Shown in pieces: positions 36,285 through 54,730 of a stretch of 64,000 bases of DNA. The position numbers and the translations under genes were made by a program. Below the pieces are notes generated by a model, which made no database searches, was not told the origin of the DNA, and saw only the letters and a list, made by a program, of their open reading frames with translations. Source of the DNA: Gilvimarinus xylanilyticus (GTDB lineage: Bacteria; Pseudomonadota; Gammaproteobacteria; Pseudomonadales; Cellvibrionaceae); contig NZ_JAMFTH010000001.1 of NCBI RefSeq assembly GCF_024195295.1, forward strand, positions 1,612,001 to 1,676,000. The letters run 5' to 3'. The first letter of the stretch is position 1. Each line of letters begins with the position of its first letter.

Positions 36285-37382
36285 ATGACCGAGTTCGATT
36301 TATCGCGCCGCCAGCTGATTAAACGCGCCAGTGTCGGCGCCGCGCTGCTGAGCACGGGGGCCGGCAGGCAGGTTTGGGCCGCCACCCCCAAACGCAAATT
36401 GGGCGTTGCCCTGGTGGGGCTTGGCTACTACAGTCGCGACTTATTGGCCCCGGCACTGCAGCTAACCGAACACTGCGAGCTGCGCGGTATTGTCACCGGT
36501 AGCCCCGAAAAAATCCCCGTATGGCAGGAGAAATACGGCATTAAAGATGCCAATGTGTACCACTACGGCAATATGCATCGGCTGGCCAATAACCCGGATA
36601 TCGATGTGATTTATATTGTGGTGCCCACCGGCCTGCATATGAAGTACTCGGTCATCGCCGCCAATGCGGGCAAGCACGTATGGTGCGAAAAGCCCATGGC
36701 CATGAGCGTGCAGGAGTGCCAAACCATTATCGATGCCTGTCGCAAAAACAAAGTGAAATTGTCGGTGGGCTATCGGATGCAACACGAGCCCAACACTCAG
36801 ACCATTATGCAGTACGCCCAAAGTCGCCCCTACGGTGCCTTGCAAACCATCGATGCCGTTGCCGCCTACGCGGGTAACGGTTTACCGGCGGACAACTGGC
36901 GCATGCAAGCGGATATGGGCGGCGGCGCACTCTACGATATGGGTGTATACGCCATAAACGGCGCCCGCTACGCGGCGGGTCTGGAACCTGTAGCTGTGAC
37001 GGCCACACGGGACTTTAGTCACCCCAAGTTCGAGGAAGTGGACAACACCACCCGCCTGACTCTGGAATTCCCCGAGGGAATTATCGCCAACTGTCGCACC
37101 TCGGTGGTCGAGTCCGGTAACCGCTTGCGGGTTAACTGCGCCGACGGCTGGTACCGACTGGCGCCCATGCAGTCCTACAATGGCGTACAAGGCGAGACCA
37201 GCGATGGCAAAAAGCTGGATAAGTTTATTGCCAACCAGCAGGCGGCGCAGATGGATAACGACGCCCAGGCGATCTTGAATGGCACCGCCGTTAAAGTACC
37301 GGGCGAAGAAGGTATGCGCGATATTGCGATTGTACGCGCCGCCATAGAGTCCGATAAAAAGGGCGAGCGCATCGTGCTGTAA
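36285..37382 (+). CDS. Tat-exported Gfo/Idh/MocA oxidoreductase
   Basis: 365 residues. Twin-arginine signal: SRRQLIK followed by a hydrophobic segment to AWA-type cleavage (GRQVWAA). Rossmann fold begins VALVGLGYYS; the catalytic lysine motif is intact (WCEKPMAMS), and the C-terminal dimerisation domain includes GGGALYDMGVYAINGARYA. It resembles glucose-fructose oxidoreductase, which carries tightly bound NADP through the Tat route and dismutates sugars in the periplasm. Monocistronic; start codon preceded by GAGAGGG. Confidence 0.87.
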   Translation: MTEFDLSRRQLIKRASVGAALLSTGAGRQVWAATPKRKLGVALVGLGYYSRDLLAPALQLTEHCELRGIVTGSPEKIPVWQEKYGIKDANVYHYGNMHRLANNPDIDVIYIVVPTGLHMKYSVIAANAGKHVWCEKPMAMSVQECQTIIDACRKNKVKLSVGYRMQHEPNTQTIMQYAQSRPYGALQTIDAVAAYAGNGLPADNWRMQADMGGGALYDMGVYAINGARYAAGLEPVAVTATRDFSHPKFEEVDNTTRLTLEFPEGIIANCRTSVVESGNRLRVNCADGWYRLAPMQSYNGVQGETSDGKKLDKFIANQQAAQMDNDAQAILNGTAVKVPGEEGMRDIAIVRAAIESDKKGERIVL

Positions 37383-42257: not shown

Positions 42258-43244
42258 TTACAGCACGTCCATCAGTCCGTCTTTAGAGGCCTTGACGGCC
42301 TCCATAGGGGTCATTCCCTCTGGATAAACTTCTTGCTCGACTACCAGCCAAGTCGATTTAGAGGTGTCTTTAAAAGCTTCAATTACCGCACTCCAATCAA
42401 CCAAATCCTGTCCCACAATAGACGTTACACCGTTATCGGCGGCGGTGACTTTATTCAGCTCGGCAAATACCAGCCCCATCTTCTCACCCCACCCCTCTGG
42501 GTTGGCTTTTTCGATGGCGGGCATGGCGTCTTTATAGTGAGTCACCTGGGCTTTAATGTGTGCAGTACGCACCCGGCTTTCGTATTGACGAATCAGCTTG
42601 GCAGGGTCCATACCGGCAAAGTAAGCCCAGCTGATGTCCAGCTGCATAATCACATTGTCGGCGGTGTTATCGGCCATATACTCCCAATAAGTCGAGTCTT
42701 TATAAGTATTAAACTCGTCCTGGTGGTTGTGATAGCCAATTTGCATGCCATGAGGGGCCAGGCGCTCGGCCATGGCATTTAAGTCGGCCACAATATCTTC
42801 AATGCCGTCGTCGTTCCAGGCGCGACCATCAGCCGGTACAATTAACCAGTTAACCCCCAAGGTTTTGTAAAACTGAACCGTCGCATCGAATTTCTCATCG
42901 GTTAACTGATCAAACCCCACATGGGCGCCGGAAACCTCTAACCCCAGCGAGTCCAAATAGGCCTTAAAGGCTTGGGCGTCATCGCCGAACTCGCCCAGGT
43001 TACCCGCCAGCTCGACGCCATCAAAACCCCAGTCGGCGAGCTGCTTTAGGGTGCCTTTTACATCGTCACTCACGTCGTCTTTAACCGACCAAAGCTGCAC
43101 CGAAACGCCTTCAAAAATACGCTCTTCGGCATGCTTGTGGTGATGATCGTGATCTCCTGCCGCCAGGGCCGCGCCGCTAAAACTAAAGGCCACTGCCGCC
43201 AACCAGGGCATGGCAAATCGTTTTAAAGTATTAAGTGCTGTCAT
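42258..43244 (-). CDS. Secreted sugar phosphate isomerase/epimerase-like TIM barrel protein
   Basis: About 328 residues from the ATG at 43244 (GGAG five bases before). Signal peptide (LKRFAMPWLAAVAFSFSGAALA) then a His-rich segment (GDHDHHHKHAEE), which could bind metal. The xylose-isomerase-like barrel shows metal-ligand candidates: IGYHNHQDEF, MQLDISWAYFAG, RTAHIKAQ, and WLVVEQE near the C-terminus. Such exported members occur in sugar-oxidation clusters. No partner is adjacent; substrate unknown. Confidence 0.8.
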   Translation of the reverse strand: MTALNTLKRFAMPWLAAVAFSFSGAALAAGDHDHHHKHAEERIFEGVSVQLWSVKDDVSDDVKGTLKQLADWGFDGVELAGNLGEFGDDAQAFKAYLDSLGLEVSGAHVGFDQLTDEKFDATVQFYKTLGVNWLIVPADGRAWNDDGIEDIVADLNAMAERLAPHGMQIGYHNHQDEFNTYKDSTYWEYMADNTADNVIMQLDISWAYFAGMDPAKLIRQYESRVRTAHIKAQVTHYKDAMPAIEKANPEGWGEKMGLVFAELNKVTAADNGVTSIVGQDLVDWSAVIEAFKDTSKSTWLVVEQEVYPEGMTPMEAVKASKDGLMDVL

Positions 43245-43657
43245 AACCACTCCGATTATTGTCGTTAGTAAAGAGCGCAAGAATAGTATTGTTTACCGCA
43301 GTTGGACAGCCCCCATAATTCAAGACAATCGACCGAGCCGACCACAAAGATCGTAAACCCTGGCAAAAGCCCGTCATCTGGCCCTTTGCGGGGGCTGTGA
43401 TCAGTATCAAATTTTGTGAATAAAAGTTGCCGCAGTTTACAAACCAGGCTTGGTACACAACTCACCCCCAGCGCCCGCCCTGCCTGACCTTTCGCAACTG
43501 AACAAAAAACAAACCAATCTAAACGCAATATTAACGCTGCCCCCTCATTAAATATTAATATAGTTTAATCATACAATTATAGTCGGAACCTCTCTAAGAT
43601 TGGGCCGCTGAGGGTTCTCAGCCTATACCTATAACGGATAAACAATGAGGTTCTTCC
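43245..43657. other. Noncoding gap between divergent isomerase and pectate lyase genes
   Basis: 413 bases without a supported gene. The right 110 bases are AT-rich and include ATTATAGTC and similar promoter-like words before the pectate lyase gene; no clear operator was seen. The left part is close to average composition. Confidence 0.4.
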
Positions 43658-44839
43658 ATGATAAAGACAATTTTCACCCTAATGACGCTGCTCAGCCTGA
43701 GCATAACGGCACTAGCGGGTCCGCCCTCGGGCCGCTATGTGATTATTTCCAAGCTAAACGGCAATGCCCTGGATGTGGATAGTTTCAGCAACGACAATGG
43801 CGCCAATGTGATGCAGTGGTTCGCCATGGGTGGCGCCAATCAGCAGTTTGATATCCAAACCCTGAGCGACGGCAGCTACTCCATTCGTGCCGTACACAGT
43901 GGTAAATCTTTGGATGTCTGGGAATGGAATGCCGATGACGGTGCCGAGCTGCGCCAGTGGGACTACCTGGGCGGCGACAATCAGCGCTGGTTTATCGATG
44001 ACCAAGGCGGCGGCTATTTTTCTATTACCTCTAAATTCAGCGGCAAATCCTTGGATGTATGGGAAATGAATATGTACGCCGGTGCCGATATCCGCCTGTT
44101 TAGCTACTGGGGCGGCGACGGCCAGCTGTGGACCTTCCAGCGCGTAGGCGACAGCAGCGAGTGCTACGCCGGCGCCACCCTTACCCATCGCTTTGTGGAT
44201 TGCGGCGGTAAAACCATCGGTCTGAGCTGTAACGGCGATAGCGAAAGCCAGGACCCGGTGTTAAACCTGCACAACTCGTCCGTGCGCAATGTACGTCTGG
44301 CAGCCAATGGCGGGGCCGATGGTATTCACTGTGAAGCGGGCCACTGCACCCTGACCGACGTGGTGTGGGAAGATGTCTGCGAAGACGCGGCCACTAACAA
44401 GGCCGAGAACGGCACCATGACCATCGTGGGCGGTTCGGCCTACAACTCCAGCGGCGGTTATGGCGGTAGCCCAGACAAGATCTTCCAACACAACTCTAAA
44501 AACAGCACCACCTTTATTTCCGGCGGCTTTACCACTTTCGGCGAACACGGCAAACTGTGGCGCTCGTGCGGCAACTGCACCAACAACGGCGGACCGCGCA
44601 ACGTTTACGTGTACGACGTTAATATCGACTCGGAAATAGGCTCCATTGTGGGTGTAAACCGCAACTACGGAGACCGCGCCACAATCCGCAATCTTCGCAT
44701 TCGCAATTATTCATCGGGCGACCCCAAGGTGTGCGAAGAATACCAAGGCGTGGAAAAAGGCAGCTCCTCCAGTAAGTACGGCGAGTACTGGAACAGTGCT
44801 AGCTGCGATGTGTCCACCTCTGATGTGAACCCTCTGTAA
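43658..44839 (+). CDS. Pectate lyase family 3 with N-terminal CBM13
   Basis: 393 residues. Signal peptide to about residue 20 (ITALAG), a ricin-type CBM13 module (about 23-165; repeated SGKSLDVWE-type and QQF/QRW motifs), then a PL3 catalytic domain: GADGIHCEAGHCTLTDVVWEDV, GTMTIVGGSAYNSS, DKIFQHNSK, GKLWRSCGNC, and VGVNRNYGDRATI. PL3 enzymes cleave polygalacturonate by beta-elimination with calcium. The carbohydrate module before the enzyme would target plant cell walls. Secreted. Confidence 0.93.
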   Translation: MIKTIFTLMTLLSLSITALAGPPSGRYVIISKLNGNALDVDSFSNDNGANVMQWFAMGGANQQFDIQTLSDGSYSIRAVHSGKSLDVWEWNADDGAELRQWDYLGGDNQRWFIDDQGGGYFSITSKFSGKSLDVWEMNMYAGADIRLFSYWGGDGQLWTFQRVGDSSECYAGATLTHRFVDCGGKTIGLSCNGDSESQDPVLNLHNSSVRNVRLAANGGADGIHCEAGHCTLTDVVWEDVCEDAATNKAENGTMTIVGGSAYNSSGGYGGSPDKIFQHNSKNSTTFISGGFTTFGEHGKLWRSCGNCTNNGGPRNVYVYDVNIDSEIGSIVGVNRNYGDRATIRNLRIRNYSSGDPKVCEEYQGVEKGSSSSKYGEYWNSASCDVSTSDVNPL

Positions 44840-48210: not shown

Positions 48211-51200
48211 TTACTGCCTTTCGAGCGTACGAATATAAGACACCACATCCTTAAGCGCTTGCTCGTCGGGCAGCATCTTGGCAAAGCTTGCCATTTGCTG
48301 ACCCACCGGATCGCGCGGGTCGCCGCCGCGAGCCCCCGATCGGTAGTTACGCAGCTGCGTCAGCAGATACCAGTCGGCCTGCCCCGCCAGCGCCGGGGCA
48401 CCCAATTCGCGATTACCCTGCCCTTGTACGCCATGACAAGCCGCGCAGGCAGTGTAATGCAGCGCGCCCTGTGCCGGGTTACCCTCAATCGTGGCGGGTT
48501 GCTCGTCTCTTTCCAAGCTTTCAAGGTAGCGTGCCAAACTGGAAATAGGGCTGTTTGGCTGGGGCTCGGCCTTGAGAAACTCCAGCGCCGCGCGCATGGA
48601 AATCCCGTTGGGGTCGCGAAAATGGGTGCCGCGAACACCGGCGTGAAATTTCTGCAATTGGGTCTGCGCATACCAGTTTTCAATACCCGCCAAAGGTGGC
48701 GCCGCCTGGGCCGGATCGCCCACGGCGTTACCGCCGTGACAGCCCGCGCAGTGCTGCCCGTAAAGGGTCTCGCCCCAAGAGGTGCTGCCCCATCGCCAAA
48801 CCTCGGGTTCAAACACATGCCGGGCGTGATACTCGGCGTAAGCCTCGTCCTCGACCTTGGCAAAGTTCAGATCGAGACCCGAGGAGCGCAGCTTGAGTGC
48901 CATCTGCGCTTGCGCATCAACCTCATTCACCAGCGCCTGTAAAGATGCCAGCTCGGCCGCACTGGGCTCGGCGCCCCGTTCACGCCAAACATCCAGCGCC
49001 GCCACACTCATCAACCCCAAACGCCCCGAGGGCAAACCACGCCAACTCTGCAAGGTTGAGGTCAAATCGTCGGCCTCGGCCTGTAACGTCCTTTGGGCGA
49101 CCAGGTATTCCGGCGTTTGCTCAAGGTTTTTAAAGCCCTGTAAAAAATCACCGACAACGACAATATCGGCATCGTTCATCGCCTGCCAATAAAAATCACC
49201 ATGCTTTAAGGCCGCCAAGGTAAAAGCCTGGGCGGACCATTCATCTACCGCTAACTGGGTACGCATTTGCAGCAATTGCTTACCCGCGTTTTCCGATGGC
49301 GCCTGCTCGGACAGTGCCAGCAGGGCCCATAGCCGGGCGCGCGGATCGGCGTCGTCAAGGGCCTGGGCGGCCAGCGCCAGATCGGCGGGTGTAGCGTTAT
49401 CCACCAGTGCCTGCACCGCATTTTTACGGGTGGCATCGGAGGGATGATTAAGTGCCGCTTGTACCGCCGCCTGAGTATCGCTTGAGGTGGCGCTAAACGC
49501 CCCCAGACCGTGCAGCGCCCAAATGGCGTGAATCGAGGCAACATCCAAGCCCAGGGCGTCGCTTCTGGGTGTGCCGGTGAGCAGCATTTTCAGCGCCGGT
49601 ATGGCGTCCGTCCGCTGTTCTGTGACCAGTTTGCGCTGAGCGGTAAGACGCCAGAACATATTGTCATTGGCTAAAGTCTCGACCAGGGTGGCGGTATCTG
49701 CCTCACTCAAATCCAGTGGTTCGTAAGTGGGTGAGTCTTTCGCCACCAGGCGATAGATACGACCGCGCTTGCGATCGCGTAGGGGGTTAACGTGGGCGTT
49801 ACCGGCGCCTTTCTCGGCGTCGAACCCGGCTGATTCCTGATCGGGAATCGGGTTGTGCTGAATAATAAAGTTGTACCAGTCCGCCACCCACAGCTGGCCG
49901 TCCGGCCCCACTTCCATATGCACGGGCGACAACCACTCATCAACGCTTGCGATTATGGAGCCTAAATTTTGCGCGCGATAACCGACGCTATTGTCTTGCG
50001 GCTCAAGGGCAAACTGCCCTAACAGGTGTGCGGTCGGTTCACCGATAAACGCCCCGCGATTCCAAAAGCGTTGCGGGAAAGCGCGGGCGGTATAAATATT
50101 TAAACCGGAACCTGCGGTATAGCGGCCAATATTATCAACCTGAAGATAATTGTAAGTAACGGGAAAGATCTGCCCGAACTCGTCAATTTGCGCCGCCATT
50201 TGCGGGGCCACTTCTTTTTGGCGACCGTACACGTAACTGCGCCACAAGGGCACATGCCAAATCGGCGCGCCGTTGGCGGTAGAGCCAAAGACCTCAAACT
50301 CTTCGTTAAAGGCGAGGCCCCAGGTGTTGTTGCTTAACTGGGCCACAGGCTCGATGTTACTACCGTCCAGATCCATGCGGTAGAGACCGTTTTGAAACGA
50401 TTCACCGTTTTCATCTTCCGGAGCCTCGGAATAGCCCACCGCGCCCCACAGGTGATTGTCATGGCCGTACTTTAAGTTTGACGGCCCGGCGTGGGTATCG
50501 TCCGTTCCCCAACCGGAATTGAGCACCTTGCGCAGGTCGGCCTTGCCATCGCCGGTGGTGTCTTTTAGAAACAGAAAATCCGGCGCTTGCGAGACAATAA
50601 AACCGCCATCGTAGGCCATAATGCCCGTGGGTACGCTGAGCTTGTCGGCAAACACTTGGCAGTGGTCCGCGCGGCCGTCGCCGTCGGTATCCTCACACAT
50701 GGAGATGCGATCCTTGCCGTCTTCACCATCGGTGCGATCATTGGGGTAATCCACCGACTCCACCACAAACAGGCGGCCCTGTTCATCCCAGGTAAACGCC
50801 ATAGGGTTGATGATATCCGGCTCGCTCACAAACAATTGCAGCTCGAAGCCCTCGGACACCATGGTCAACGCCATGGATTGCTCGGCGGTAAACGCCTCCT
50901 GGAATTGGGGCGCGGGCTCGACCCGGCGGTAATTGGGAATGGTAAGCTCATCGCGATACTCGCCCTCGGGCAGAGTGTCGACCAACGCGCGGTTGGCCTC
51001 GCGCTTTTCATCGCCCACCGCCCAGAGAATGCCGCGAATCAACAAATCGTGAAACGCCGGCTGACTCCAGGTGCGCTCATCGTGACCATAGGCGGTGTAA
51101 AACACCCGGCCCTCGCCCTGTTCGCGGGTCCAGGTCCAGGGTTCTTGCTCGCGCTGCATCAGCACCGTGCGACTTTCTTCGTTGTGGTCGCTGTGTGCGT

Positions 51201-51780
51201 AGGTTTCATCCCAGGTTTCGAAGGTGTTAAAGCCTTCCATAACAGGATGGTCTTCCTGTCCCGGCGCAATAGTCGCGGTAAACTCGCCCGCACCGTGACT
51301 TTTAAACCGCGCCCCGACCAGATCGACAAACGCATCGGAATGACCGAAGCAGGCGCTGGCACTGTGTACAGGCAAAAAGGCGCCCCCGTTTTCCACATAG
51401 TTGAGCAGTGCCTGCTCGCGCTCGGGCGAAATTTCGCCGTAATTGGCATACAGCATCACCGCATCAACATCTTCCAGACCCTCAGCGCTTAAGCGACTAA
51501 GATCCTCGACGTATTCCATGTTTATTTTTTCACGCCCGAGAGATTGGTTAAACAAGGGCGCATTTATATGCGATAAATGATAACCGCCTGTGTCGCGGCG
51601 CTGATCGTGACCGATAAACAGCAGGTTAATCACACCATCTTCTGCACTGATAGTTTTACTAGGATTCTGAGTATCGGCCTGCTCGTTAGAACAAGCTGCC
51701 AACAATGATCCCCACAGGGCCATTGTCAGCATTAGCGTGTAGGACCTTAGGCGGGCCCTTCTTGGGTAGTGTGGTCTCAT
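48211..51780 (-). CDS. ThuA - dehydrogenase propeller - HEAT - diheme cytochrome c fusion lipoprotein
   Basis: About 1189 residues from the ATG at 51780; a TTG upstream is less likely. Lipobox LAAC (Cys30). Order: ThuA-like flavodoxin-type domain (about 45-275; VINLLFIGHDQ, YANYGEISPEREQAL, GRVFYTAYGHDERTW), a dehydrogenase-type beta-propeller as in planctomycete membrane-bound dehydrogenases (about 300-690; MAFTWDEQGRLFVVES, SVPTGIMAYDGG, VGPDGQLWVADWYN), HEAT-type helices (about 700-960), and two cytochrome c domains with CxxCH at 1011-1015 and 1112-1116 and methionine-containing tails. No stop or frameshift within. The architecture points to periplasmic oxidation of a sugar or polyol with electrons leaving via heme; substrate unknown. 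Downstream in the gene order of the Gfo/Idh and epimerase genes. Confidence 0.85.
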   Translation of the reverse strand: MRPHYPRRARLRSYTLMLTMALWGSLLAACSNEQADTQNPSKTISAEDGVINLLFIGHDQRRDTGGYHLSHINAPLFNQSLGREKINMEYVEDLSRLSAEGLEDVDAVMLYANYGEISPEREQALLNYVENGGAFLPVHSASACFGHSDAFVDLVGARFKSHGAGEFTATIAPGQEDHPVMEGFNTFETWDETYAHSDHNEESRTVLMQREQEPWTWTREQGEGRVFYTAYGHDERTWSQPAFHDLLIRGILWAVGDEKREANRALVDTLPEGEYRDELTIPNYRRVEPAPQFQEAFTAEQSMALTMVSEGFELQLFVSEPDIINPMAFTWDEQGRLFVVESVDYPNDRTDGEDGKDRISMCEDTDGDGRADHCQVFADKLSVPTGIMAYDGGFIVSQAPDFLFLKDTTGDGKADLRKVLNSGWGTDDTHAGPSNLKYGHDNHLWGAVGYSEAPEDENGESFQNGLYRMDLDGSNIEPVAQLSNNTWGLAFNEEFEVFGSTANGAPIWHVPLWRSYVYGRQKEVAPQMAAQIDEFGQIFPVTYNYLQVDNIGRYTAGSGLNIYTARAFPQRFWNRGAFIGEPTAHLLGQFALEPQDNSVGYRAQNLGSIIASVDEWLSPVHMEVGPDGQLWVADWYNFIIQHNPIPDQESAGFDAEKGAGNAHVNPLRDRKRGRIYRLVAKDSPTYEPLDLSEADTATLVETLANDNMFWRLTAQRKLVTEQRTDAIPALKMLLTGTPRSDALGLDVASIHAIWALHGLGAFSATSSDTQAAVQAALNHPSDATRKNAVQALVDNATPADLALAAQALDDADPRARLWALLALSEQAPSENAGKQLLQMRTQLAVDEWSAQAFTLAALKHGDFYWQAMNDADIVVVGDFLQGFKNLEQTPEYLVAQRTLQAEADDLTSTLQSWRGLPSGRLGLMSVAALDVWRERGAEPSAAELASLQALVNEVDAQAQMALKLRSSGLDLNFAKVEDEAYAEYHARHVFEPEVWRWGSTSWGETLYGQHCAGCHGGNAVGDPAQAAPPLAGIENWYAQTQLQKFHAGVRGTHFRDPNGISMRAALEFLKAEPQPNSPISSLARYLESLERDEQPATIEGNPAQGALHYTACAACHGVQGQGNRELGAPALAGQADWYLLTQLRNYRSGARGGDPRDPVGQQMASFAKMLPDEQALKDVVSYIRTLERQ

Positions 51781-51872
51781 AGTTTTTATCACTTTGTGAT
51801 TATTGTTTTGCTGCAACTTTGACTAGCAGAGGCCGTTGAAAAACAAGCGGGGTTTTGCAACGGCCCATCGTT

Positions 51873-53000
51873 TTACTCCAGCGTAAACGCCGGCATTTTT
51901 TTCACTTCGCCACCGGCCAGCGCCGACTCGTGGGCCAGAATACCAACGCAGGTAATATTGGCCGACTCCACCACATTGGGGTAAGCGTTGTAATCTTCCA
52001 GCACACAGCGAATAAAGTTGTGCACTAAATGCGGATGCGAGCCGCCGTGACCGCCGCCCTGGGTAAAGCTCAGGTGTTCATTGGCCTCATCGTAAACGCC
52101 GTGGCCGGTGAAGGAGCGAATTTCTTCGGGCAACAAGTGCGCGTAATCGGGTACGGTTACCTGCTCGGGCACCTCGGGCTCGGGCTTGCCACGGGTGTGC
52201 ATAACCGGGTTTTCGCCTTCTACCAGCGGCCACTCGTAGGATTTCTCCGAGCCGTAGACATCAAAGCTCTCGCGGTACTGGCGCGCGGTGTCGTAGAGCG
52301 AGCGATAGATGCGCGCCCCCACATCCGAGTCCTGCATTTGAATGTGGCAGGATTCAATGGCGAAAGGCGAGCCGTAAATACCGGCGAACTCATCGCGAAT
52401 TTTGCCCGAGCCGATGCACTGCACCTGATTGGCCAGTTTGCGCTGCAAGCCCAACACCGGGCCCACACAGTGGGTGGCATAGTGCATGGGGGGCATACCC
52501 TCCCAGTAGCTGGGCCAGCCGTCCATATCCTGCTGGTGGCTTGCCTGCAAAAACTGAATGCGCCCCAGATCGCCCCGGTCGTACATTTCTTTTACGAACA
52601 AGTATTCGCGGCTGTAGACGACGGTTTCCATCATCATGTACTTTTTGCCGCTGGCCTTAGTGGCTTTTACGATACGCTCACAGTCTTCCACGCTGGTGGC
52701 CATGGGTACCGTGCAGGCGACGTGTTTGCCCGCCTCCAACGCCATAATGCTGTGCTTGGCGTGATCGCCAATGGGGGTATTGATGTGAATGGCATCCACA
52801 TTGGGGTCGGCCAGCATATCCTCGTAGGAGGTATAGCGCCCGCCTTCCACACCAAACTTGTCGGCCAGCTCGTTCAGGCTTTGCTCGTTGCGCTGACACA
52901 GTGCCACCACTTCGGCATTGGGGTGGGCCTGATAAATGGGGATAAACTCTGCGCCAAAGCCCAGACCCACCAATCCTACTCGCAATTTATTATTCGCCAT
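51873..53000 (-). CDS. Gfo/Idh/MocA oxidoreductase, atypical catalytic motif
   Basis: 375 residues, no signal peptide. Rossmann start VGLVGLGFGAEFIP, and IHINTPIGDH. The canonical EKP lysine motif is replaced by CTVPMATSVEDC, so the usual catalytic lysine is absent; other subfamilies with CTVP exist and may use different residues. The C-terminal domain is rich in His near GGGHGGSHPHLVHNF. AGGAGG precedes the start. Lies 92 bases upstream of the fusion lipoprotein and 33 bases after the epimerase gene, same strand. Confidence 0.87.
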   Translation of the reverse strand: MANNKLRVGLVGLGFGAEFIPIYQAHPNAEVVALCQRNEQSLNELADKFGVEGGRYTSYEDMLADPNVDAIHINTPIGDHAKHSIMALEAGKHVACTVPMATSVEDCERIVKATKASGKKYMMMETVVYSREYLFVKEMYDRGDLGRIQFLQASHQQDMDGWPSYWEGMPPMHYATHCVGPVLGLQRKLANQVQCIGSGKIRDEFAGIYGSPFAIESCHIQMQDSDVGARIYRSLYDTARQYRESFDVYGSEKSYEWPLVEGENPVMHTRGKPEPEVPEQVTVPDYAHLLPEEIRSFTGHGVYDEANEHLSFTQGGGHGGSHPHLVHNFIRCVLEDYNAYPNVVESANITCVGILAHESALAGGEVKKMPAFTLE

Positions 53001-53033
53001 GCTTCCTCCTCATCGGGAATGTTCAAGTGTGTA

Positions 53034-53885
53034 TTACGCCTGCGCCGACCATCGACGCAAAAACTCTAAGCCCCGGCGGGCAAATTCGTCCTGCGAGCTG
53101 GCAAACCGGCGCCAGATGCACACCGCCTCGGCCAGGCTGGAGGCGTCGGGGGAAAAACTCTCAATGGACACTTTGCCGTCATAACCGACCGCTTTTAGCC
53201 CCTCGCGCAGGCCCGCCCAGTCGCTGTTGCCGTCGCCGGGCACGCCGCGATGACTTTCCGATACCTGAACGTGTACCAATTGTTCACCGGCCTGTTTAAC
53301 CGCCGCGCAAAAATCGGCCTCTTCGATGTTCATATGAAAACTGTCCAGAGCGATGGCCAGGTGCGGGTGGTTAACATCAGCGAGCATACGTTTGGCATCG
53401 GCAACGGTGCAGACCATATCCGTCTCAAAGCGGTTAAGCGGCTCTAAACCCAGGTGAATGCCCCGCTCGCCCGCCATAGTGGCCAACCGGTGCAGGTTGG
53501 TCGCCGAGCGCTCCCACTCGGCGCGGCGCAGCGCCTCAGTGGCAAGGCGAGGTTTGGCCACCGGCGCGTACAGCGGGCCGACCAGAACGCCGGAACCCAG
53601 GTTTTCGGCTAACGCCAGACAGCCGCCAAAATAGTCCAGTGCCTTATTGACGACATCCGGGTCCGCAGAACTCAAATCCCGATCACCCACTACCGCCGTG
53701 CAGATAATGGCCTCCAGGCCTAAATCCTGCAGCACAGGCCTGAGTTTGGCGGCATCGATATGTTCAGGGTCTTCCACTGGAATCTCGACAAAATCGAAAC
53801 CCATATGGGCGATTTTTTGCAGCAGCTGCACATCATCGCTGGTAAAGGGTGAAGTCCACAGCCAGGTACTGGCGCCAAATTGCAT
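53034..53885 (-). CDS. Ketose 3-epimerase-like sugar isomerase (TIM barrel)
   Basis: 283 residues, cytoplasmic. D-tagatose/D-psicose 3-epimerase features: the metal-binding Glu in [12 protein letters not shown], Asp and His in [24 protein letters not shown], and the second Glu in VSIESFSP. It probably epimerises or isomerises a keto-sugar. First gene of the three-gene minus-strand cluster and divergent from the AraC regulator. Confidence 0.88.
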
Positions 53886-53986
53886 GCTTGTACTCCCAGA
53901 TCGTTATATTTGTAGCTGACGACATGCTAGCGCTAAACCCCGAATGTGGCTTGTACCTTGTCGTAAAAAAATTGTATTATTTCGAC

Positions 53987-54730
53987 ATGAAAACGATAGA
54001 AGCCTGGCTCGCTCAACTGGACCCCCGACATTCGGCGGCGCAGATTTTTGAGTTTATGCCCAGCGTGCTCTACTTTGTAAAAGATCGCGACGGCCATATC
54101 ATGACAGGCAACCAGGCCTTTGCCGAGCGCTGTGGCTGCGCCTCGGCCCGCGAACTCTACGGCCGTCGGGATGACACTTTATTCCCCCTGTACATGGTGG
54201 AAAAATTTCGCCGCGACGACGCCACCGTGTTTCACACCGGCGCCCCGCTGCACGATTTGATTGAACTCTTCCCCACCCGCGAGGGGCTGCCCGAGTGGTG
54301 CGTGACCCATAAGGTGCCGCTGTTGAATTTGCATGGCGAGGTGGTGGGCCTGTGCGGCATTGTGCAGAGCTACGAGCGCATGTCCGACCACCCCGAACGG
54401 CCGGAGTTTCAGGTGGTGGAATACATTCGCGCCCATTACGCCGAGCGTTTAAATATCCCCGACATAGCCGAGCAGTTTGGTTTTTCCCAAAGGCAGCTGG
54501 AGCGTCGCTTTGCCGACACCTTTGGCGCCAGCCCGCGCGAGTACATTATCAGGCTGCGCACCCTGGTCGCCTGCGAGCATTTACGCAGCAGCAATACCCC
54601 CGTGTCCGATGTGGCGCTTGAGTGCGGTTTTTACGACCACAGCAGTTTTATTCGTCACTTTAAGCGCATTTTGGGGGTTACGCCGCTGGCTTACCGCAAA
54701 CACCAAAACAGCCAAGGCGGTAGCCATTAA
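53987..54730 (+). CDS. PAS-AraC transcriptional regulator
   Basis: 247 residues from the ATG at 53987; the upstream frame is noncoding. An N-terminal PAS-like domain (about 20-120: VLYFVKDRDGHIMTGNQAF, LPEWCVTHKVPLLNLHGEVVGLCGIVQ) precedes the two helix-turn-helix units of AraC (LNIPDIAEQFGFSQRQLERRFADTFG and PVSDVALECGFYDHSSFIRHFKRILG). 101 bases separate it from the divergent epimerase gene, a likely regulatory region for the cluster. The PAS domain may sense a small ligand. Confidence 0.93.
   Translation: MKTIEAWLAQLDPRHSAAQIFEFMPSVLYFVKDRDGHIMTGNQAFAERCGCASARELYGRRDDTLFPLYMVEKFRRDDATVFHTGAPLHDLIELFPTREGLPEWCVTHKVPLLNLHGEVVGLCGIVQSYERMSDHPERPEFQVVEYIRAHYAERLNIPDIAEQFGFSQRQLERRFADTFGASPREYIIRLRTLVACEHLRSSNTPVSDVALECGFYDHSSFIRHFKRILGVTPLAYRKHQNSQGGSH

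What the first reader, a model, noticed from the sequence alone, without database searches (positions are those of the whole stretch)
48211..54730. Possible oxidative keto-sugar pathway built around a five-module fusion lipoprotein
One lipoprotein joins ThuA, dehydrogenase-type propeller, HEAT and two cytochrome c domains. The same strand carries a Gfo/Idh/MocA protein and a ketose-3-epimerase-like protein, and a PAS-AraC regulator is divergent. ThuA/ThuB, Gfo/Idh and such TIM-barrel isomerases are known together in 3-keto-glycoside metabolism. The fusion with its own diheme tail would allow periplasmic oxidation feeding the respiratory chain. The assignment to a pathway is inference; the domain order is seen.
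Basis: partly seen in the sequence, partly recalled or inferred. Interest (0 to 1): 0.8.

Follow-up and report, generated by a model that had tools for sequence, protein, structure and literature searches.

The report
Swappable-tail sugar oxidation gene cassette
Three neighbouring genes, one of them a large membrane-anchored protein with a built-in electron carrier, recur together in distantly related bacteria and probably oxidise a sugar outside the cytoplasm and finish its breakdown inside; the carrier looks like a haem protein in some bacteria and a copper protein in others.

Summary
Window 48211-51780(-) encodes a lipoprotein with ThuA, a TIGR02604/DUF7133 propeller, HEAT-like helices and two cytochrome c domains. 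Beside it on the same strand lie a Gfo/Idh protein and a ketose-3-epimerase-like TIM barrel; a PAS-AraC regulator is divergent.

The co-conservation test passes: 73 of the 80 loci examined carry all three genes on one strand, in Cellvibrionaceae, Pelagicoccus (Verrucomicrobiota) and Bacteroidota, in two gene orders.

Three new points. (1) In 71 of 78 relatives the tail carries an azurin-like copper motif instead of haem, the best evidence that the core is a redox enzyme with an electron exit. (2) The Gfo protein lacks the EKP lysine (Val in 73 of 73) and resembles GH109 NAD-dependent glycosidases; the barrel has Gln in place of a metal His. (3) The propeller fold is nearest PQQ sugar dehydrogenases, but strict PQQ-site motifs are absent (0 of 29).

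Most likely: periplasmic oxidation of a sugar or glycoside, electrons leaving through the tail, completed in the cytoplasm. Substrate, cofactor and a 3-keto step remain inference.

The parts
48211..51780 (-). Fusion lipoprotein (1189 aa from ATG; a TTG reading starts at 51816): signal-ThuA-propeller-HEAT-diheme cytochrome c
51691..51780 (-). Lipoprotein-type signal, LLAAC with Cys30
   Evidence: motif read by eye, no signal-peptide predictor run
51019..51585 (-). ThuA domain
   Evidence: PF06283, 123.2 bits; Foldseek ThuA-like 4jqs/4pxy/4e5v
49735..50886 (-). DUF7133/TIGR02604 propeller
48817..49695 (-). Helical HEAT-like region
   Evidence: HEAT_2, just under cut-off; model helices 696-988
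48736..48750 (-). First haem motif CAGCH (residues 1011-1015)
48433..48447 (-). Second haem motif CAACH (residues 1112-1116)
48223..48789 (-). Two C-terminal cytochrome c domains (best PDB match cytochrome c4, 1etp)
51873..53000 (-). Gfo/Idh-fold protein with Thr-Val-Pro in place of the EKP motif; GH109-like active-site residues
53034..53885 (-). Ketose-3-epimerase-like TIM barrel with Gln207 in place of a metal-ligand His
53987..54730 (+). Divergent PAS-AraC regulator (ATG start; a GTG reading starts at 53849)
   Evidence: similar gene divergent in 5 of 5 barrel-Gfo-fusion loci
53886..53986 (.). 101-base intergenic region between the barrel gene and the regulator, presumed control region

Best explanation
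The locus is a three-gene oxidative carbohydrate cassette split across the inner membrane. The lipoprotein sits in the periplasm; its propeller, helped by the ThuA domain, oxidises or oxidatively rearranges a sugar or glycoside. The electrons leave through a fused carrier at the C-terminus: two c-type haems here and in Pelagicoccus, one haem in Roseibacillus, an azurin-like copper domain in Bacteroidota. The carrier passes them to the respiratory chain. The oxidised product enters the cytoplasm, by an MFS carrier that is encoded within or beside the cassette in three loci. There the GH109-like Gfo protein (NAD-dependent oxidation, elimination or reduction) and the metal-dependent TIM barrel (isomerisation, elimination or hydration) return it to a common sugar. 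Shown: gene content, domain make-up, co-occurrence, exchange of the tail, conserved active-site changes in both partners. Inferred: redox chemistry of the propeller, direction of electron flow, cellular location of each protein, substrate, order of steps, any 3-keto intermediate.
Confidence: 0.55

Rival explanations
1. The propeller is a redox-neutral hydrolase, lactonase or lyase of the SMP-30/DFPase/virginiamycin-lyase kind, and the carriers serve another purpose.
Against: Exchange of unrelated electron carriers at the same place is hard to explain without electron flow. The sugar-dehydrogenase folds rank above. The reported activity was measured on protein made in E. coli BL21(DE3)pLysS with a glucose-release assay, so host beta-galactosidase is a concern (my comment; strain background recalled).
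Confidence: 0.2
2. The propeller is a PQQ-dependent sugar dehydrogenase like soluble GDH, with PQQ scavenged from outside.
For: Best fold matches are PQQ enzymes and their kin. The own genome carries a GSDH with intact PQQ-type motifs (L119) although no PqqC was found there, so the host may scavenge PQQ.
Against: HRNxQG, EHGxxGGDE, GGDE and R[IVLT]R[DHTY]: 0 of 29 propellers; control GSDH set 16, 18, 19 and 19 of 19. A looser RNx[QE][GA] pattern hits 2 of 29 (18 of 19 controls), both at an unrelated place. PqqE over cut-off in 0 of 5 Cellvibrionaceae genomes with the fusion (weak under-cut-off matches in all 5); PqqC 0 of 9 genomes of other phyla with the fusion (no control rang there); positive control PqqC over cut-off in 12 of 114 Gammaproteobacteria.
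Confidence: 0.12
3. The cassette handles an inositol, uronate or rare ketose rather than a glycoside: the barrel epimerises a free keto sugar and Gfo reduces or oxidises it.
For: The barrel's best families are D-psicose 3-epimerase (173.1 bits) and IolO 5-keto-L-gluconate epimerase (138.5), both under cut-off. Ketose 3-epimerases are its best PDB matches. Gfo matches IolG and levoglucosan dehydrogenase models weakly.
Against: Metal His replaced by Gln in all module barrels aligned; Gfo lacks the EKP lysine and is GH109-like; weak sugar-binding-type matches in some fusions point to bound carbohydrate.
Confidence: 0.25
4. The neighbourhood is accidental and the fusion is just one of many PVC-type proteins.
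For: Weaker matches to parts of the fusion are common in related genomes (57 of 58 have some match) and two loci carry the fusion alone (L052, L111).
Against: 73 of 80 loci with both partners on one strand across three phyla; a divergent AraC-type gene within 1.5 kb in 59 of the 62 loci that have that gene family and a fusion ORF.
Confidence: 0.03

Closest known systems
PVC-type heme-binding CxxCH proteins (TIGR02604 / DUF7133), incl. Lac161_ORF7 (PMC5342196)
   Same: Same propeller family (221.8 bits, cut-off 122.2), with HEAT and cytochrome c as described for Lac161_ORF7
   Different: N-terminal ThuA, a c4-like diheme tail instead of TIGR02603 (16.0 against 68.15), a copper tail in Bacteroidota, fixed linkage to two other enzymes
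Planctomycete-specific cytochromes PSCyt/PSD (PMC5615132)
   Same: Multidomain cytochrome proteins of the PVC group, some with carbohydrate-binding modules (passages); functions unknown
   Different: Different domain families; I tested no relation beyond a weak PSCyt1 match in L036 (E 0.07)
Soluble PQQ sugar dehydrogenases (GSDH PF07995; 3a9g, 2ism, 2g8s, AA12)
   Same: Nearest solved folds of the propeller; a ThuA-GSDH fusion exists in the own genome
   Different: No PF07995 match at E 0.1; strict PQQ-site motifs absent
A. tumefaciens glycoside operon: GlycDH, AtOGE, AtHYD, Gfo (PMC10628242)
   Same: Oxidising enzyme, Gfo protein and TIM barrel in one operon
   Different: Its oxidising enzyme is a flavoenzyme of the pyranose oxidase family, not a propeller; two barrels there, one here; the Gfo there acts as a reductase, ours lacks the EKP Lys
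GH109 NAD-dependent glycosidases (2ixa, 6t2b)
   Different: No PF21252 hit at E 0.1; the Tyr of YQHD (2ixa) / YLHD (L140) is His155 here; an ordinary EKP Gfo scores higher with our profile than a GH109 does (61.5 against 44.5 bits)
Ketose 3-epimerases (D-tagatose, D-allulose, L-ribulose)
   Same: Nearly full-length homology (7cj4 4.8e-43, L-ribulose 3-epimerase 3vyl 5e-43); Glu148, Asp181, Glu242, Arg213, His184 kept
   Different: Metal His replaced by Gln207; family score 173.1 under the 300 cut-off

Membership tests
PVC-type TIGR02604 | Score over curated cut-off | tested here: met
   221.8 against 122.2
PVC-type TIGR02604 | C-terminal CxxCH haem | tested here: met
   two in the window; absent in 72 of 78 relatives (71 with the copper motif in frame, L112 with it in another frame)
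PVC-type TIGR02604 | PVC haem domain TIGR02603 | tested here: not met
   16.0 against 68.15
ThuA (PF06283) | Score over curated cut-off | tested here: met
   123.2 against 33.4
PQQ sugar dehydrogenase (GSDH) | Propeller fold of the soluble sugar dehydrogenase type | tested here: met
PQQ sugar dehydrogenase (GSDH) | PF07995 match | tested here: not met
   none up to E 0.1
PQQ sugar dehydrogenase (GSDH) | Site motifs HRNxQG, EHGxxGGDE, RxR (their PQQ role recalled) | tested here: not met
   0 of 29 against 16, 18 and 19 of 19 controls; motif counts, not a structural map
PQQ sugar dehydrogenase (GSDH) | PQQ binding and PQQ-dependent activity | not testable with these tools
   needs protein
Azurin-type cupredoxin (tail of Bacteroidota relatives) | Copper-bind profile over cut-off | tested here: met
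   34.1-48.0 against 21.2 in L046, L052, L062, L113 (4 of 7 fusions scanned, 5 of which have the copper motif); L041 has the motif but no profile hit. TIGR02695 azurin in L046 is 39.3, under its 105.1 cut-off
Azurin-type cupredoxin (tail of Bacteroidota relatives) | His...Cys-His-Met ligand set (pattern recalled from azurin) | tested here: met
   C/H/M in 71 of 78 ORFs; also MxHN at the tested spacing in 62
Gfo/Idh/MocA NAD-dependent dehydrogenase | Rossmann domain PF01408 | tested here: met
   92.7 against 24
Gfo/Idh/MocA NAD-dependent dehydrogenase | EKP lysine (role recalled; Glu-Lys-Pro seen in GFOR and DgpA alignments) | tested here: not met
   Val98 in 73 of 73 rows, window plus 72 loci
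GH109 | PF21252 C-terminal domain | tested here: not met
   no hit up to E 0.1; a GH109 in a relative, L140, scores 174.4
GH109 | Active-site Glu149, Tyr225, His228, Tyr307 (numbers recalled; H228 seen in PMC6521355) | tested here: met
   E125 by alignment to 2ixa; Y174 and H177 by alignment to L140, Y242 only approximate; each 73 of 73
GH109 | Active-site Tyr179 (number recalled) | tested here: not met
   His155 in 73 of 73
Ketose 3-epimerase | Metal ligands Glu, Asp, His, Glu (set recalled) | tested here: not met
   E148, D181, E242 kept in 75 of 75; His replaced by Gln207 in 74 of 75, the exception being a second, opposite-strand barrel in L057
Ketose 3-epimerase | NCBIfam equivalog score | tested here: not met
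   173.1 against 300
3-keto-glycoside pathway | C3 oxidation of a glycoside | not testable with these tools
   no substrate information

The most novel reading that the evidence does not exclude
The TIGR02604/DUF7133 propeller is a class of respiratory carbohydrate oxidase independent of the known PQQ site. It works as a tethered redox enzyme whose electron exit has been exchanged between haem and copper. With a GH109-like Gfo enzyme and a Gln-variant metal barrel it forms a portable oxidation-elimination route for cleaving glycosides. This would give the PVC-type cytochrome proteins a mechanism.
Probability: 0.35. Interest if true: 0.8.

Novelty: new variant of a known kind. Interest (0 to 1): 0.6.

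Why it matters
[quoted passage not shown] The TIGR02604 proteins are a different family but pose the same puzzle (my comparison). This cassette gives a compact case in named isolates (Gilvimarinus algae, Marinimicrobium, Algoriphagus, Maribacter, Pelagicoccus): the haem-for-copper exchange predicts electron flow out of the propeller, which spectroscopy can test directly, and the two linked enzymes narrow the substrate search.

Tried and rejected
PQQ dehydrogenase by sequence: profile search of the propeller in the PDB gave only 5 WD-40-type propeller sequences, judged repeat-driven; hhalign against 19 GSDH proteins aligned 68 columns (probability 45.6, E 0.00021), so no residue-by-residue PQQ-site map was made, only motif counts.

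PQQ synthesis as an argument: weak, since the own genome has a GSDH without a PqqC match. PqqE and PqqC reached their cut-offs in none of the 14 control genomes; the positive control is. Of the 9 genomes, 8 hold the cassette and 1 (L052) shows the fusion alone.

Viral fold library: nothing informative. Plasmid collection: no match at 1e-50. Gfo ortholog at 1e-80 in 369 Gammaproteobacteria genomes, an even draw: only the own genome.

Gfo as a plain GH109 member: rejected as membership (no PF21252; Tyr to His; scores), kept as 'works like'. A metal-site idea for Gfo His173/His177 was not pursued: His173 is Tyr in 2 of 73.

Literature searches that listed no description of this cassette: (open-access library; listings only, four papers opened in part).

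Full report
WHAT IS THERE. The finding's coordinates hold four genes. The fusion protein reads 48211-51816(-) from a TTG, but the ATG at 51780 gives 1189 residues with a lipoprotein-type signal ending in LLAAC, so that start is preferred. Pfam finds ThuA, DUF7133, a sub-threshold HEAT_2 and two cytochrome c stretches; NCBIfam calls it a PVC-type heme-binding protein (TIGR02604). The best solved relative of the tail is cytochrome c4 (1etp, E 1e-12). AlphaFold2 with 29 aligned sequences gives mean pLDDT 76: ThuA, propeller and helical region are mostly good, the haem domains poor. On the same strand lie a Gfo/Idh-fold protein (51873-53000) and an AP_endonuc_2 TIM barrel (53034-53885); a PAS-AraC regulator is divergent.

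WHERE IT OCCURS. The window is from a 3.93 Mb genome whose nearest named relatives for this cassette are Gilvimarinus algae and Marinimicrobium agarilyticum, so probably Gilvimarinus or close kin. A near end-to-end fusion match of at least 72% identity is in the own genome and 4 others of 58 searched; 57 of 58, the own one included, have some match, many to single domains. In those 4 the Gfo and barrel genes adjoin the fusion (L005-L008; the barrel is cut by the fetched flank). A close Gfo ortholog is in 1 of 369 class genomes, the own one. So the cassette is sporadic in Gammaproteobacteria. In GTDB contigs, 244 stretches encode a relative of the fusion, of which the 80 best were fetched: Cellvibrionaceae, Pelagicoccus, many Bacteroidota, one Roseibacillus MAG and one Gemmatimonadetes MAG.

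CO-CONSERVATION. Of these 80 loci, 73 carry both a Gfo match (over 50% identity) and a barrel match (over 40%), all on the fusion's strand. The order is barrel-Gfo-fusion in 5 loci (Cellvibrionaceae and Pelagicoccus) and fusion-barrel-Gfo in 68. Three more have the barrel and then the contig ends. Of the four with neither, two (L050, L081) lie at contig ends; L052 (Dyadobacter, 10 kb on each side) and L111 (Roseibacillus, 5.3 and 2.5 kb) lack them nearby. A gene like the window's PAS-AraC is divergent in all 5 barrel-Gfo-fusion loci. In the other order a different AraC-type gene family (so called from the HTH matches and by eye, not scanned) is divergent within 1.5 kb in 59 of the 62 loci that have it and a fusion ORF. 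Identities of the window proteins to Pelagicoccus (55-57% fusion, 73-75% Gfo, 63-66% barrel) all exceed those to Bacteroidota (about 43-48, 61-67, 43-50%). The Gfo tree puts the 3 Gamma and 3 Pelagicoccus rows in one starred set (100/99) with 67 Bacteroidota rows outside (its output was cut, and I saw only part of the fusion tree and none of the barrel tree). The three genes have therefore probably moved or been inherited together. An MFS transporter family sits directly after the fusion in L036 and L037 and between fusion and barrel in L049 (only L036 was scanned in Pfam).

THE TAIL IS EXCHANGED. The Bacteroidota fusion ORFs have no CxxCH. Instead they end in a pattern such as CTVPGHWRIMNG, the type-1 copper pattern of azurin (pattern recalled). 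Of 78 loci with a fusion ORF, 71 have C/H/M in that spacing, 62 of them also an upstream MxHN; 5 have two haem motifs; L111 has one; L112 is broken but has the copper motif in another frame. Of 7 fusions scanned in Pfam, Copper-bind passes its cut-off in 4; L041 has the motif without a profile hit. TIGR02695 azurin matches L046 at 39.3 bits, under its own cut-off of 105.1. By contrast 14 of 14 opposite-strand propeller relatives in the same loci keep a CxxCH. Some copper- or single-haem-tailed fusions also show weak sugar-binding-type matches, mostly under cut-off: Laminin_G_3, Glyco_hydro_2_N and CBM_4_9; BetaGal_ABD2 in L046 passes (25.1 against 23). Unrelated one-electron carriers at the same end of the same core are best explained by an electron exit. 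Eight loci also have a small gene of one family just after the cassette; the one scanned, in L041, is a cytochrome c.

PUBLISHED CONTEXT. PMC10628242 (section 7 and passages) shows an A. tumefaciens operon with a flavoenzyme glycoside dehydrogenase, two TIM barrels (beta-eliminase and probable hydratase) and a Gfo reductase: oxidation, elimination, hydration, reduction. PMC5342196 (section 15 and passages) reports lactose hydrolysis by a purified TIGR02604-HEAT-cytochrome protein. [quoted passage not shown] PMC6521355 (passages) gives the GH109 mechanism and H228. No paper on this cassette was listed in the searches named under Tried and rejected.

VERDICT. A real, widely shared three-gene cassette with an exchangeable electron exit.

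Noticed in passing
window 36285-37382 (+): A second Gfo/Idh protein with an apparent Tat-type leader (by eye) and an intact EKP motif, not part of the cassette.
   Followed up: partly
window 42258-43280 (-): An apparently secreted (by eye) AP_endonuc_2 TIM barrel, sugar isomerase-like, next to a ricin-type/pectate-lyase-like gene at 43658-44839 (name by eye).
   Followed up: partly
L002 (own genome contig C10, 75594-77237): A separate fusion of ThuA with a GSDH-type (PF07995) propeller; ThuA-plus-propeller fusions occur more than once in this genome.
   Followed up: partly
L119 (own genome contig C4): A GSDH with intact PQQ-type motifs in a genome without a PqqC match: PQQ scavenging or an apo-enzyme.
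   Followed up: partly
L041:15696-16163: A 155-residue cytochrome c gene follows the cassette; its family recurs after the cassette in 8 of the 80 loci, possibly the acceptor of the copper tail.
   Followed up: partly
L112: Fusion and Gfo reading frames look split in Maribacter litopenaei; real decay or sequencing error not decided.
   Followed up: no
L036:13495-15042, L037:13544-15088, L049:13667-15217: MFS-family gene just after the fusion in Pelagicoccus and inside the cassette in Botryobacter; the two Pelagicoccus genes have weak matches to the L-fucose symporter model.
   Followed up: partly
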